This document shows positions 56,975 through 62,758 of a DNA stretch of 64,000 bases, one piece after another. The stretch is from Butyrivibrio sp. (GTDB lineage Bacteria; Bacillota; Clostridia; Lachnospirales; Lachnospiraceae): NCBI GenBank assembly GCA_017470505.1, contig JAFUYO010000013.1, positions 124,001 to 188,000 on the forward strand, given 5' to 3'. The notes below the pieces were generated by a model. It was given only the letters and a program-made list of their open reading frames with translations, was not told the origin of the DNA and ran no database searches. The position numbers and the translations under genes were made by a program. How positions within the stretch are numbered: position 1 is the stretch's first letter; every line of letters starts with the position of its first letter.

Positions 56975-57005
56975 AAAAAGAGGCCATCCCCAAAGGGACA
57001 ACCTC
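56975..57005 (-). terminator. Intrinsic terminator of the surface-glycan operon
   Basis: On the minus strand GAGGTTGTCCC and GGGGATGGCCTC form an 11-bp stem using several G-U pairs, followed by TTTTTATG. It lies 53 bases past the stop of the secreted coiled-coil protein and ends the operon that starts near 62.7 kb. Confidence 0.75.
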
Positions 57006-57030
57006 TCATAAATAACGATATCCTATAGAA

Positions 57031-57821: not shown

Positions 57822-58610
57822 TTACTGTTCGGCAGGGTCCGTGTAGTCAACCTCTCTGTCGATAAGTCCTCTCACATCGCCGACAAGGCAACCGACAACG
57901 ACGGTCTGCCTGGATGGGTCGTTTGGGTTTACGGTGCTCAGGGTGATGATAAAGTTGTCAGGCTCCACAGCGCCTTCCCAGCCTGATCTCACCAGCTTGT
58001 TCATGCTCTTTGCCTCGTATATCTCATCGAGAAAAGCCTGACAGCCCGATGCGTAGGTGAAATCATAAAACTCAAGGAGCCTTGTGTTCCTCCTCGTAAA
58101 TGCCGCAAACACGTAGTAAATAAGGGCATTGCCGTCCATGTATACATATATGTACTCGTGGTCTTCAAAAAAAGATCTGTCGAGAAACTTCTGAAGGTCC
58201 GAGAACATGGTCCCGTCGGAGGGTGAGCTGCCGTGCAGCACCTCATTGAAGTCGCACATGTTCGTCAGATTCGCGCACTCGGTGTAAATGGCGCCCTTCG
58301 GGTCAGGCTCTTTTAGATAATTGTGGTCCGTGTAGTAGGCGTCATCGCCCATGCTGCTCTGACAGACAGGATAGTCGATTGCGGTATCCGGCACATAGAG
58401 CCAGGCAAAAATATCCTCGTTCTCTTTGTGAAGTTTGTCAAAGTCCACATGAGAGCCTGATGCGCTCTGATTCCGTGCCCCTGTATCCGCATCCTGCCCG
58501 GGGAGGGAGATGCTGCCGCACCCGGTCAGCAGTACCAACGCAAGAACCACGGCCAAAACTCTTTTTGCCGGATTCTTCTCTATGTAATTATTTCGGCAGT
58601 GATAAAGCAT
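57822..58610 (-). CDS. Sortase-B-fold lipoprotein lacking catalytic His and Cys
   Basis: A 262-residue lipoprotein: signal peptide with lipobox LTGC (Cys31), a linker, and a class B sortase-like domain (about 60-250) with IDYPVCQSS, DGTMFSDL and TLST. The two catalytic residues are changed: the usual YGHN reads HGSS (residues 126-129, Ser at the His position) and the usual TLSTC reads TLSTV (Val227). The Arg (R234) remains. It is thus probably a binding or scaffold protein. The start ATG has no clear ribosome site and lies four bases past the LCP stop, so it is likely coupled. Confidence 0.85.
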   Translation of the reverse strand: MLYHCRNNYIEKNPAKRVLAVVLALVLLTGCGSISLPGQDADTGARNQSASGSHVDFDKLHKENEDIFAWLYVPDTAIDYPVCQSSMGDDAYYTDHNYLKEPDPKGAIYTECANLTNMCDFNEVLHGSSPSDGTMFSDLQKFLDRSFFEDHEYIYVYMDGNALIYYVFAAFTRRNTRLLEFYDFTYASGCQAFLDEIYEAKSMNKLVRSGWEGAVEPDNFIITLSTVNPNDPSRQTVVVGCLVGDVRGLIDREVDYTDPAEQ

Positions 58611-58614
58611 CTAT

Positions 58615-59670
58615 TTAGTCCACGTAGTCAATTTTTTCGTAGAATACATCTATTATTGTAGCATAAAGGTCGTCTTCATCCACAATGAATTCTTCAAACT
58701 CGCCGTTCTTCTGGTTCTTGCCGGCTATCATCTTAAGGTCAGAGGTGTCAAAGCTGTACCTGGTGATGAGAGGCGCCAGATAGCTGATCTCATCCGCCGT
58801 GATGTTCGTCACCATCTTGTCGCTGATGGCTGTAAAGAGCTCAACCGCCGCGTTGGGGTTTCTCTCACTCTCATCTCTCGCCGCCTGGATGAACGCGTTC
58901 AAATACTGCCTCTGCCTTTCAAATCTCATGTCGCTCGAGCCGAATATCTTTGTGTCCCTCTGCTTTACGTAGTAGTAGGCCTGCATACCCTCGAGGTGAA
59001 CCTGTGCACCCTCATACAGGGCCTTGTCACACTTAGTGAGGTCCTCAAGAACCGTGACGTCAACGCCTCCCACCTCATCGTTGATAGTGGGGATCGCGCT
59101 CATGTTTATAGCCGCGTATCCGTGAATCGGCAGCTGGTAAAACATATTGGAGACAGCCTTCACCTGATACTCACAGCTCTTTTCAACGCCGTTTCCGAAT
59201 CCGTGCTGGGCCGCAATCTGCCCGACTACTGTCGTCTGGTATCTGCCGTACTCGTCGTAGATATCGATGTCCGTCATGGAATTCCTGTTGATACCGATCA
59301 CCTTGATCGACTCCTTGCGGGGATTTAGCACCAGCAAAAAGAGTGCATCCGCCTGTCCGCCGTCAGTACCCTCCGGAACCTCTGTCACAACATCGTCCAT
59401 CTTGTCTATGCCCATGATGAGGAACGTGGTGATATCCTCGTTGTAGTCATAGACACTTCCGTTGTAGCGCACCCAGTCGGACTGCCAGCTCGGTCCTCTC
59501 TCCTGGACTTCCGCCGAGTTCTGCGCAAGCGTCGGCGTGGTGGTGGCAGATTTTGATATTAAACTTGATCTTCCGAATAACCTGAACGCCTCAAAACCGA
59601 CCAGTACAACAACGATCAGAGTCATAAGACTGGCCCAGATTATGAGAAATACCCTTCCCTTCTGTCTCAT
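58615..59670 (-). CDS. LytR-CpsA-Psr (LCP) family glycopolymer ligase
   Basis: A 351-residue membrane-anchored enzyme that attaches surface polymers to peptidoglycan from lipid-linked precursors. One N-terminal helix (8-28) leads to the LCP domain with TTFLIMGIDK, GGQADALFLLVLN, INRNSMTDI and the later MRFERQRQYLNAF. AGGAG lies before the ATG. Its place downstream of the CpsD kinase genes supports a role in anchoring the operon's polysaccharide. Confidence 0.92.
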   Translation of the reverse strand: MRQKGRVFLIIWASLMTLIVVVLVGFEAFRLFGRSSLISKSATTTPTLAQNSAEVQERGPSWQSDWVRYNGSVYDYNEDITTFLIMGIDKMDDVVTEVPEGTDGGQADALFLLVLNPRKESIKVIGINRNSMTDIDIYDEYGRYQTTVVGQIAAQHGFGNGVEKSCEYQVKAVSNMFYQLPIHGYAAINMSAIPTINDEVGGVDVTVLEDLTKCDKALYEGAQVHLEGMQAYYYVKQRDTKIFGSSDMRFERQRQYLNAFIQAARDESERNPNAAVELFTAISDKMVTNITADEISYLAPLITRYSFDTSDLKMIAGKNQKNGEFEEFIVDEDDLYATIIDVFYEKIDYVD

Positions 59671-59684
59671 CTGCAGCTCCTGAA

Positions 59685-60209
59685 TTAATTACCTGTTGCC
59701 TGTCCGGACTCCTGTCCCTGCGAAGGAGCGGCAACTCTCTCCTGTGTATTTTCTTCGCTATCGCTCTCCTGCCCGTCTTCGGATGGCTCCCCTTCAGTCA
59801 GGGATCCGTCCTCCGACATCATATTTGGAAAGAGGCCTTCCTCCATCTGGTCGGGAAGTTCTCCTTCTCTCTCGAGATCCGCGATATCAGCGGGAAAAAC
59901 TCTCGACTGCTTGGTCACATTTCCGCTGTAATCGGCAACTGCGTAATAGACTACAGCTGTCTCTTTCTCCCGGTTAAGCACCACCTTCTCAACAACGATC
60001 CTGCCCGTTAAGTCCCCGTCCTTGGAATCAAAGGCGCTTATGCCTGTAACGAGGTCCTCATCGGTCGTCTTTGAGTCGTAGATGACACTCGATGAAGCAA
60101 ACCTAAACTCAGGTGCTATGCGGTCGCTCCTTCCGTATGCAACTACGATGAGGAATATCAGCACTCCGCTCAATATGGAAAAAAGTACTCCGAGAATATT
60201 GCCTCTCAC
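59685..60209 (-). CDS. Membrane-anchored DUF5011-like protein
   Basis: A 174-residue protein with one N-terminal helix (4-26) and a short Ig-like region like DUF5011: ISAFDSKDGDLTGRIVVE and AVVYYAVADYSGNVTKQSRV. The last 60 residues are a Glu/Ser/Gln-rich tail. The start is GTG with AGGAGG five bases upstream. It lies between the kinase and LCP genes. Exposed tails of this kind may contact wall polymers; function unknown. Confidence 0.75.
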   Translation of the reverse strand: MRGNILGVLFSILSGVLIFLIVVAYGRSDRIAPEFRFASSSVIYDSKTTDEDLVTGISAFDSKDGDLTGRIVVEKVVLNREKETAVVYYAVADYSGNVTKQSRVFPADIADLEREGELPDQMEEGLFPNMMSEDGSLTEGEPSEDGQESDSEENTQERVAAPSQGQESGQATGN

Positions 60210-60256: not shown

Positions 60257-61093
60257 TCAGTCTTTCCTTGTGACTCCCGCAAGATAGTTGAGTTCATCCA
60301 GATCGTCCTCATCCGGCTCTATGTCCTTGGAGGGCGCTGTCCTGGTCTTCTGTGACGGCGGCGGCGCCGGCGGTTCCTCCCCGTTTCCGTAGTACTTGCC
60401 GTAATACTTGCCGTAGTATTTGCCGTAATAGCTGCCGTAGTGGCCGTAGTAGCCCTTGCCGGAGATGTCAACCTTGTTGAGGACAACTCCGATCATCCTG
60501 GCTCCGGCCTTGTCCAGCTGGTCCTTGACCCTCTGGGCAAATCTGTAGCTGATGGCGTTGCTCTCTATAACCATGATGGTTCCGTCGCACTGCTTGGCCA
60601 CAACTGCGGCATCGATAACGCTTCCAAGAGGCGGCGTATCAATTATCACATAGTCAAAAACCTGTTTCATGTTCTCGAGGACCTTGGAAAAGATCCTGCC
60701 GCCCAATAGCTCACTCGGGTTCGGCGGAACGGGTCCCGCAAAGACAACATAGAGATTCGGCGTGTCGGTCTCGCAGATAACGCTTGATAGTCTCTCTCTG
60801 CCTACAAGGCAGTGCGTAAGTCCGAGCCTGACCGACCCTGTCCTGTACCTGCCGACAAGCACCGACTTTCGCATATCGGCGTCGACCAGGACTGTCTTTT
60901 TGCCGGCCTCAGCAAAGGCTCTTGCTAGTGCCATTGCGACTGTGGTCTTGCCCTCTCCGGGGGTACAGCTGGTGATAGATATGACGCGCACATTCTGTCC
61001 CGAGAACTCTACATTACTCCTCAGTGTCTTGTACGCTTCCTTTATCTGATAATTGTTTTCAGCCTGTGAAAAGTGAAGTTTGGCGGTCTGCAT
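60257..61093 (-). CDS. Bacterial tyrosine kinase CpsD/CapB type
   Basis: A 278-residue cytoplasmic BY-kinase that controls polysaccharide chain length and export with YveK. Walker A is TPGEGKTT (44-51), Walker A' LVDADMR (69-75) and Walker B YVIIDTPP (148-155). The regulatory tail holds 11 Tyr between 215 and 235 in YYGK repeats, followed by a Pro/acidic end. AAGGAG precedes the ATG. Phosphorylated tail tyrosines should be targets of the CpsB-like phosphatase. Confidence 0.95.
   Translation of the reverse strand: MQTAKLHFSQAENNYQIKEAYKTLRSNVEFSGQNVRVISITSCTPGEGKTTVAMALARAFAEAGKKTVLVDADMRKSVLVGRYRTGSVRLGLTHCLVGRERLSSVICETDTPNLYVVFAGPVPPNPSELLGGRIFSKVLENMKQVFDYVIIDTPPLGSVIDAAVVAKQCDGTIMVIESNAISYRFAQRVKDQLDKAGARMIGVVLNKVDISGKGYYGHYGSYYGKYYGKYYGKYYGNGEEPPAPPPSQKTRTAPSKDIEPDEDDLDELNYLAGVTRKD
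60386..60453 (-). repeat. 12-bp tandem repeats encoding the CpsD tyrosine tail
   Basis: About five copies of a 12-base unit resembling TTGCCGTAGTAC encode the YYGK motif within the kinase gene. As whole codons, gain or loss of a unit changes the tyrosine number without a frameshift. Confidence 0.7.
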
Positions 61094-61951: not shown

Positions 61952-62680
61952 TCACTCGACAGGCTCATTTCTTATCACATTTGCCGCATTCAGGAAAAAG
62001 AGTCTTTTCGCGTAGTCCTCTCCGAACTTTTTTTCGACAAAATGCCTGCACGGCAAAAGGTCCGGCGCGCGCTTTTTGGTGTCGTGGGCATCGGATGCGA
62101 TGAAGTGAACCTGCTCATCCTTCAAAAGCTTTTTGGTAAAATGGCCAATCCCGAAGCCGTACCTGCCCATAATACTCGATGCGTTGACCTGTATGAGGCA
62201 CCCCATATCGATGAGGTCCGAAACATACTTCGGGTGTGAAACAATGTCGCTGTATCGCTCTACGTGCGCGACTATCGGAATGAACCCTGCCGACTGCACC
62301 TTGTACATCGCGTTCTGAATCGCCTTGTAGGGGTTGGTCGGGTGAAACTCAACAAGCACGTAATCGGAGCCTGCAAGCGAACAGATTTCGCCCTCAACAA
62401 GCTCTCTGAAGGTCTCATCGCTGTAATATATCTCATTGCCTGAAAAGAGCTTTACCTTGATCCCCGAAGCCTTCGCCATATCGAGGAGCCTCTTTCTGTA
62501 CAGGACATTGTGCTCGGGGCTCACATTGTGGTGCATCGGCTTGTGATGCGGTGTCAGTATCATATGCGTGATGCCGTTCTTCTCAGCAATACGCATCATC
62601 TCAAGGCTCGTCGCCATGTCAGGCGATCCGTCATCCACTCCCGGCATGACGTGACAGTGTATATCAATTGTTGGCTGCAT
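61952..62680 (-). CDS. Tyrosine-protein phosphatase CpsB/CapC type (PHP family)
   Basis: A 242-residue manganese-dependent phosphatase that removes phosphate from the CpsD tail. PHP metal motifs are DIHCHVMPGVDDGS at the start, LTPHHKP, AHVER and FIASDAHDTKKR. I chose ATG 62678-62680 (MQPTIDIHCH); 12 upstream codons have no ribosome site. First gene of the surface-glycan operon. Confidence 0.93.
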   Translation of the reverse strand: MQPTIDIHCHVMPGVDDGSPDMATSLEMMRIAEKNGITHMILTPHHKPMHHNVSPEHNVLYRKRLLDMAKASGIKVKLFSGNEIYYSDETFRELVEGEICSLAGSDYVLVEFHPTNPYKAIQNAMYKVQSAGFIPIVAHVERYSDIVSHPKYVSDLIDMGCLIQVNASSIMGRYGFGIGHFTKKLLKDEQVHFIASDAHDTKKRAPDLLPCRHFVEKKFGEDYAKRLFFLNAANVIRNEPVE

Positions 62681-62728
62681 CTGATAATTACCACAAATAA
62701 AAATAAATATGTACAAAATTACAGGTTA

Positions 62729-62758
62729 ATTATACACCTAACCGAGATTACCTTTCAA
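62729..62758 (-). promoter_or_regulatory. Promoter of the surface-glycan operon
   Basis: On the minus strand TTGAAA (62753-62758), 18 bases, TATAAT (62729-62734). The start of transcription should be near 62722, about 40 bases before the cpsB-like gene. Confidence 0.65.

What the first reader, a model, noticed from the sequence alone, without database searches (positions are those of the whole stretch)
57822..58610. Pseudo-sortase: class B sortase fold as a lipoprotein with both catalytic residues lost
The His position of the usual YGHN motif is Ser128, and the Cys of TLSTC is Val227, while the Arg and surrounding fold motifs remain. It also carries a lipobox instead of the usual membrane anchor. 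Loss of both catalytic residues with an otherwise intact frame suggests a selected non-enzymatic role, for example binding a sorting signal or wall polymer.
Basis: partly seen in the sequence, partly recalled or inferred. Interest (0 to 1): 0.82.

Follow-up and report, generated by a model that had tools for sequence, protein, structure and literature searches.

The report
Dead sortase in a capsule-attachment operon
A gut bacterium (genus Butyrivibrio) and many of its relatives keep, under selection, a protein-anchoring enzyme that has lost its active site, inside a capsule-type operon and next to a secreted protein that lacks the anchoring tag carried by its relatives beside working copies, which suggests that an enzyme pair has become a non-enzymatic one.

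Summary
The gene (57822-58610) is on the minus strand and encodes a class B sortase-like lipoprotein with His replaced by Ser128 and Cys by Val227. The catalytic Arg is lost too (Gln235; Arg234 is its neighbour). It is no local decay: in 62 orthologues from 79 genomes of the genus (Butyrivibrio by named relatives), 0 have the His, 0 the Cys, 1 an Arg there; the lipobox Cys aligns in 62 and selection is purifying. The gene sits in a conserved operon: CpsB, Wzz, BY-kinase, Ig-like membrane protein, LCP ligase, dead sortase, secreted partner. Outside the genus, 45 of 55 intact class B relatives read also stand beside an LCP gene, and a published M. gnavus mutant of a capsule-cluster class B sortase loses its capsule. 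Beside intact sortases the secreted partner carries a PxTG-type motif (58 of 60; two cut by contig ends); beside dead ones never (0 of 64). Catalysis and partner motif are thus absent together, while LCP active-site residues stay invariant. Best reading: a lipid-anchored, non-enzymatic subunit of the LCP module, perhaps holding the partner non-covalently.

The parts
57822..58610 (-). pseudo-sortase: class B sortase-like lipoprotein, 262 aa, no catalytic His, Cys or Arg
58518..58520 (-). lipobox Cys31 (LLTGC)
   Evidence: aligned Cys in 62 of 62 orthologues
58227..58229 (-). Ser128 at the catalytic His position
   Evidence: 0 of 62 orthologues have His
57930..57932 (-). Val227 at the catalytic Cys position
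   Evidence: 0 of 62 orthologues have Cys
57906..57908 (-). Gln235 at the catalytic Arg position
   Evidence: Gln in 60 of 62, Arg in 1
58615..59670 (-). LCP (LytR-CpsA-Psr) family glycopolymer ligase; its stop lies 4 bases before the pseudo-sortase start
59685..60209 (-). N-terminal membrane segment (read from sequence) plus weak Ig-like surface domain match
   Evidence: PF16403 15.8 bits, below cut-off 27
60257..61093 (-). Wze/CpsD-type BY-kinase
   Evidence: TIGR01007 235.4 bits
61119..61850 (-). Wzz/CpsC chain-length determinant
61952..62716 (-). CpsB/CapC phosphatase
   Evidence: PF19567 327.4 bits
57058..57780 (-). secreted partner protein (likely start ATG at about 57723); homologous to the PxTG-tagged partners of live loci but ends before any sorting signal
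62729..62758 (-). promoter-like site TTGAAA-18-TATAAT (11 of 12) before CpsB; consensus match only
56978..57007 (-). terminator-like 13-pair stem with T run after the partner gene; the number of such sites in the region (6) is not above shuffles (6.7)

Best explanation
The gene encodes a pseudoenzyme derived from the LCP-linked class B sortases of Lachnospiraceae. Ancestral set (as in intact loci): a membrane sortase beside an LCP ligase and a small secreted protein with a PxTG sorting motif, which the sortase would link covalently to peptidoglycan while LCP links the polymer. In Butyrivibrio the sortase lost its whole His-Cys-Arg site and has a lipobox, and the partner has no sorting motif, yet the genes stay together. 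Most likely the lipoprotein now acts by binding: it sits at the membrane with LCP and holds the secreted partner (and perhaps the incoming polymer) non-covalently during polymer attachment. Shown: absence of all three residues, conservation, gene order, paired absence of the motif. Inferred: direction (loss, since the tree is unrooted), membrane lipidation, partner or LCP binding, role in polymer attachment.
For: 0 of 62 orthologues with His or Cys, 1 of 62 with Arg, 62 of 62 with the lipobox Cys. Window plus 55 of 61 fetched loci show all seven genes in order. Purifying selection, dN/dS 0.06-0.22 in 14 of 16 close pairs. LCP on the same strand within 1.5 kb in 65 of 66 dead and 56 of 74 live loci. 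LCP residues D108, R129, R238, R249 invariant in 64 of 64 LCPs beside dead and 55 of 55 beside live sortases. Partner with PxTG-type motif: 58 of 60 live, 0 of 64 dead. Tagged ORF on the same strand within 5 kb: 48 of 74 live, 0 of 66 dead; on the opposite strand, as background, 7 of 74 and 3 of 66. Live and dead partners homologous (hhalign one against one: 98.0%, E 2.9e-13, 70 columns). M. gnavus srtB4, in a capsule cluster that holds LCP gene RGna_12040, is needed for capsule display (PMC13121745).
Against: No physical contact with LCP or partner is shown. The dead state arose perhaps only twice on the tree, so the pairing gives 2 independent contrasts (sign test p 0.5) and the AU test does not reject a single origin (p 0.343). 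The second case (L159, which keeps the Arg) was found in 1 of 4 genomes of its genus. 17 of 79 genus genomes showed no orthologue, some of them 99-100% complete, so the gene is not essential to the genus. Three near-invariant extra Cys leave room for other chemistry. No structure model could be made. Gene neighbours need not interact.
Confidence: 0.5

Rival explanations
1. Scaffold for LCP alone: the sortase fold was always also a structural partner of LCP (or a binder of the peptidoglycan stem that class B sortases use as acceptor), and in Butyrivibrio only this part remains; the secreted partner is unrelated to it.
For: LCP on the same strand within 1.5 kb in 65 of 66 dead and 56 of 74 live loci; gene start 4 bases after the LCP stop; in the window's genome 2 of 3 LCP genes lie beside a dead sortase.
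Against: Does not explain why the partner gene is retained (found in 64 of 66 dead loci) nor why it lacks the motif.
Confidence: 0.25
2. Relocated catalysis: a new active site uses the extra Cys residues (C119 58 of 62, C190 62 of 62, C241 59 of 62) or His126.
For: Cys near-invariant in the dead clade and absent at these columns from 13 live rows; C119 and C190 also in two of three diverged dead paralogues.
Against: His126 is His in only 45 of 62; C119 is Thr in 4; C241 is replaced in 3; the partner has no motif to act on.
Confidence: 0.1
3. Relic: a decaying sortase carried along in a useful operon.
For: Catalytic positions drift freely, and the segment after the His position is shortened in at least six orthologues.
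Against: Open frames of similar length in 62 loci (marks one stop inside the match in two of them, G065 and G018, whose ORFs are still 253 and 250 aa), dN/dS 0.06-0.22, invariant lipobox Cys and 52 positions conserved at 90% or more.
Confidence: 0.05
4. Trans role towards an active sortase of the same cell, for example presenting its substrates.
For: At least six genomes hold both this gene and an intact LCP-linked sortase.
Against: The window's own genome (84% complete) shows only two class B homologues, both dead; G050 (95% complete) shows a single class B match, which one search identifies as the dead one. Other sortase classes were not excluded (the Pfam search missed even this gene).
Confidence: 0.08

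Closest known systems
Class B sortase (SrtB, TIGR03064; solved SrtB chains such as 5jcv, 1ng5, 2oqw)
   Same: Sequence-level match over most of the sortase domain (about residues 49-241).
   Different: His, Cys and Arg all lost; lipobox (6 of 74 live relatives also show a lipobox-like pattern); scores 112 bits against a cut-off of 153.75, although most genus members also miss that cut-off.
Mediterraneibacter gnavus SrtB4 in the capsule cluster (PMC13121745)
   Same: Class B sortase gene in a cluster with an LCP gene and BY-kinase/phosphatase genes; the paper reports loss of capsule display in the mutant and candidate tagged targets near its sortase genes.
   Different: SrtB4 is treated there as a sortase enzyme; the text has no hit for catalytic, cysteine, active site or inactive. 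That srtB4 is RGna_12035, next to LCP RGna_12040, is my inference from locus numbers. Its sequence was not compared here.
LCP-linked live class B loci in other Lachnospiraceae and in the same genus (for example L105, L108-L113, L115, L116, L189 and 45 of 55 live rows of L130-L182)
   Same: LCP neighbour and, where found, the secreted partner domain; CpsB, Wzz or Wze within 5 kb in 24 of those 55.
   Different: Live His and Cys, and a partner with a PxTG-type motif.
Pseudoenzymes in general; SipA-type inactive signal peptidase of streptococcal pilus clusters (recalled, no call)
   Same: Dead relative of a surface-processing enzyme kept in an assembly operon.
   Different: Different fold and system.

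Membership tests
Class B sortase (as an enzyme) | sortase B sequence/fold | tested here: met
   by sequence; no structure model
Class B sortase (as an enzyme) | catalytic His (YGHN) | tested here: not met
   0 of 62 orthologues
Class B sortase (as an enzyme) | catalytic Cys (TLSTC) | tested here: not met
   0 of 62
Class B sortase (as an enzyme) | catalytic Arg | tested here: not met
   Gln in 60 of 62, Glu 1, Arg 1
Class B sortase (as an enzyme) | curated family cut-off TIGR03064 | tested here: not met
   112.1 against 153.75 bits; weak test, since only 10 of 79 genus genomes have any match above it
Class B sortase (as an enzyme) | tagged substrate encoded nearby | tested here: not met
   0 of 64 partners beside dead sortases; 0 of 66 dead loci with a tagged same-strand ORF within 5 kb
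Pseudoenzyme | clear homology with conserved loss of catalytic residues | tested here: met
Pseudoenzyme | purifying selection on the gene | tested here: met
Pseudoenzyme | demonstrated non-catalytic function | not testable with these tools
   needs bench work
Capsule-cluster (SrtB4-like) module | class B sortase gene beside LCP with CpsB/Wzz/BY-kinase | tested here: met
Capsule-cluster (SrtB4-like) module | required for capsule display | not testable with these tools
   reported for M. gnavus only
Lipoprotein | lipobox with Cys after a signal sequence | tested here: met
   aligned Cys in 62 of 62; a simple pattern misses 7 of these 62; lipidation itself not tested

The most novel reading that the evidence does not exclude
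A covalent surface-anchoring pair (sortase plus PxTG-tagged substrate) was converted, across a genus, into a non-covalent lipoprotein-ligand pair: the dead sortase is now a receptor that holds the former substrate at the LCP ligase during capsule attachment. A stepwise path may be visible in living relatives: tagged substrate with membrane tail, tagged substrate ending at SPKTG without a tail, then no tag and a dead sortase. If so, LCP-linked sortases in general may work partly without catalysis.
Probability: 0.35. Interest if true: 0.85.

Novelty: new variant of a known kind. Interest (0 to 1): 0.72.

Why it matters
My ten full-text searches of the held library turned up no conserved natural pseudo-sortase; I saw listings and a few passages, and preprints and most subscription papers are not held. 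It offers a natural test of an open point: why deleting a sortase (srtB4) removes a capsule in M. gnavus, when sortases attach proteins and not polysaccharides. If dead versions serve in a similar operon, part of that role may be structural and may act through LCP and the small secreted partner, whose members tested here have no Pfam or NCBIfam match above a curated cut-off. It is also a clean case in which enzyme site and substrate tag are missing together while the gene set is kept.

Tried and rejected
Local decay: rejected (62 orthologues). Chance resemblance to sortase: rejected. 'Sorting-signal receptor': weakened, because the partner beside the dead sortase has no motif. Fixed replacement residues at 128/227 as a new active site: rejected, these columns vary widely. 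Disulfide between C119 and C241: the exceptions fall in different rows, so not supported. Window partner gene in solved structures: no credible match (one hit at E 0.0089 to a TFIID subunit). L173 was first noted by me as a possible loss of Cys; the full alignment shows it is intact (TLSTC). Outside the genus, L159 is the only dead case among 56 rows of L130-L182 (55 live). The sign test on independent contrasts has no power.

Rows dropped before counts: L101 and L102 (broken further copies of the operon in G062), L119 and L183 (stretches fetched for other reasons); in the tree, rows under 180 aa; the tree used 33 of 62 pseudo-sortase rows. The live loci were picked mostly as best matches to this protein, so the LCP linkage rate is not a census. 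The motif pattern was widened after seeing live variants such as SAKTG, APSTG, SPKMG and APKTY and asks for no tail; the pattern, which also asks for a hydrophobic tail, gives 48 of 60 live and 0 of 64 dead. Of the 64 dead, one partner (L085) is cut by a contig end and one (L066) was read in an odd frame, so 62 are fully readable. The partner profiles were built from tagged live partners and from the window-type partners, so an untagged live partner could be missed (14 of 74 live loci had no partner found).

Full report
WHAT IS THERE. The finding's coordinates hold a 262-aa ORF on the minus strand. It is a class B sortase relative by sequence (TIGR03064 112.1 bits; Pfam Sortase 27.1 against cut-off 26.6; solved SrtB chains E 1.6e-19 single, 7.3e-23 by profile). 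The window lies in an 84% complete genome of 2.75 Mb. The nine nearest named records are all Butyrivibrio, which belongs to Lachnospiraceae; I take the window's genus and family from these.

THE ACTIVE SITE IS WHOLLY GONE. I read 62 orthologues (the window and 61 loci from as many other genomes, out of 79 genomes of the genus searched) and aligned them with 16 further class B relatives. His position: 0 of 62 His. Cys position: 0 of 62 Cys. Arg position: Gln in 60, Glu 1, Arg 1. Among the 16 others, 13 have His, 13 Cys and 14 Arg. Ser128 and Val227 are not conserved. At least six orthologues have the segment after the His position shortened. Kept instead are the lipobox Cys (62 of 62), core residues such as N64, P81, Y93, H96, G127 and Y165, and clade-specific C119, C190 and C241. 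In 16 close pairs dN/dS is 0.06-0.22 for the 14 with dS of 0.3 or more and 0.38-0.45 for two with dS under 0.1; LCP is 0.03-0.13 and the secreted partner 0.07-0.48. Against universality: 17 of the 79 genomes showed no such orthologue, among them well assembled ones (G041, G061).

THE OPERON. Upstream on the same strand are LCP (4 bases away), an Ig-like membrane protein, a BY-kinase, Wzz and CpsB; downstream is a secreted protein. All seven genes stand in this order in the window and in 55 of 61 fetched loci; five of the six exceptions lie at contig ends and in one (L098) the other genes are on the opposite strand. A promoter-like site precedes CpsB and a terminator-like stem follows the partner gene; both are consensus matches only. 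The flanking genes listed show no obvious glycosyltransferase by eye, so the module may serve polymers made elsewhere (inference; those flanks were mostly not searched against families). For B. proteoclasticus B316 a paper counts 13 exopolysaccharide loci (PMC2914790, passages seen).

RELATIVES THAT STILL WORK. Among the best matches outside the genus (drawn from 397 genomes of the family; 53 loci read, L130-L182) 55 of 56 sortases have His and Cys; 45 of the 55 stand beside an LCP gene on the same strand and 24 have CpsB, Wzz or Wze within 5 kb by simple BLAST. Over all loci read, LCP lies within 1.5 kb of 65 of 66 dead and 56 of 74 live sortases. At least six genomes of the genus carry both a live LCP-linked sortase and the dead one (G008, G039, G052, G060, G073, G077). 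The window's genome shows two class B homologues, both without His and Cys and each near an LCP gene; a third LCP gene lies elsewhere. In M. gnavus a class B sortase, SrtB4, in a capsule cluster with an LCP gene is needed for capsule display, and mutants of the LCP gene and of a tyrosine phosphatase gene of the cluster share the defect (PMC13121745; abstract, passages, sections 9 and 15 read). No test of catalytic residues is found in that main text.

PAIRED ABSENCE IN THE PARTNER. Many live loci encode near LCP a small secreted protein with a PxTG-type motif: a tagged, signal-bearing ORF on the same strand within 5 kb is seen in 48 of 74 live and 0 of 66 dead loci, against 7 and 3 on the opposite strand as background. 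With profiles for this protein, a partner was found in 60 of 74 live and 64 of 66 dead loci. It carries the motif in 58 of 60 live (the other two are cut by contig ends) and 0 of 64 dead loci; if a hydrophobic tail is also asked for, 48 of 60 and 0 of 64. The two kinds are homologous: hhalign 98.0%, one-against-one E 2.9e-13 over 70 columns, with the dead-type protein ending a few residues after the shared domain where live ones run on to the motif. As a control inside the same loci, LCP residues D108, R129, R238 and R249 are invariant in 64 of 64 LCPs beside dead and 55 of 55 beside live sortases. So one reaction was dropped and the other apparently kept.

HOW MANY TIMES. The tree (111 rows, quick method) puts the genus's dead sortases and their diverged dead paralogues (L103, L104 and, on a very long branch, L114) together (SH-aLRT 90, not starred) among live Lachnospiraceae sequences. 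A further dead case, L159 (His to Gln, Cys to His, Arg kept), sits among live rows (96, then 90); its partner is 43% identical to a live partner over residues 1-190 but has no motif. That is two independent cases at best. The AU test does not exclude one origin (p 0.343) and two contrasts cannot reach significance. L159 was found in 1 of 4 genomes of its genus. The tree is unrooted, so that the change was a loss is inference.

MECHANISM. Shown: absence of the catalytic residues, lipobox, conservation, gene order, absence of the partner motif. Inferred: the lipoprotein binds at the membrane, most likely to LCP and/or the secreted partner, and takes part in attaching or displaying a polymer. I put about 0.75 on a non-catalytic accessory of the LCP module and about 0.4 on direct holding of the partner.

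NOVELTY. Individually, class B sortases, LCP ligases, capsule operons and pseudoenzymes are known. A natural pseudo-sortase kept across a genus, with substrate tag and enzyme site missing together, was not found in ten searches of the held library (listings and a few passages only). I rate it a new variant of a known kind.

Noticed in passing
L133 (two partners), L166, L168, L169, L172, L175, L176: Beside intact sortases these partner proteins end at or within two residues of the motif (SPKTGE, SPKTGN, SPKTGR, SPKTGDR, APKTGEF, SPKMGE) with no hydrophobic tail, and I saw no obvious tail in the downstream frames printed: possible tail-less sortase substrates.
   Followed up: partly
G000:C31, locus L114:5026-5892 (outside the window): A second, highly diverged class B relative without catalytic His and Cys in the window's genome (the alignment may keep an Arg), again near an LCP gene and a secreted protein without a sorting motif.
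   Followed up: partly
L103, L104, L225, L227: A dead paralogue family in four genomes of the genus (G019, G076, G074, G002); none of the four shows YGH or a TC motif.
   Followed up: partly
57822-58610 (residues 119, 190, 241): Three near-invariant Cys (58, 62 and 59 of 62) absent at these columns from 13 live rows; role unknown.
   Followed up: partly
L101, L102 (genome G062): Two further copies of the operon in one genome, broken into pieces, beside an intact third copy (L055).
   Followed up: no
L079/L081 and L077/L080: In these close pairs dS is 0.02-0.06 for the pseudo-sortase but 0.7-0.8 for the BY-kinase of the same operon, which hints at recombination inside the operon.
   Followed up: no
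59685-60209: The small protein between BY-kinase and LCP has a membrane segment, a weak Ig-like match and an acidic tail; it is kept in the operon, and weak matches lie in some live clusters.
   Followed up: no
L098 (genome G018): The only locus where the pseudo-sortase lies on the strand opposite to LCP and the kinase genes.
   Followed up: no
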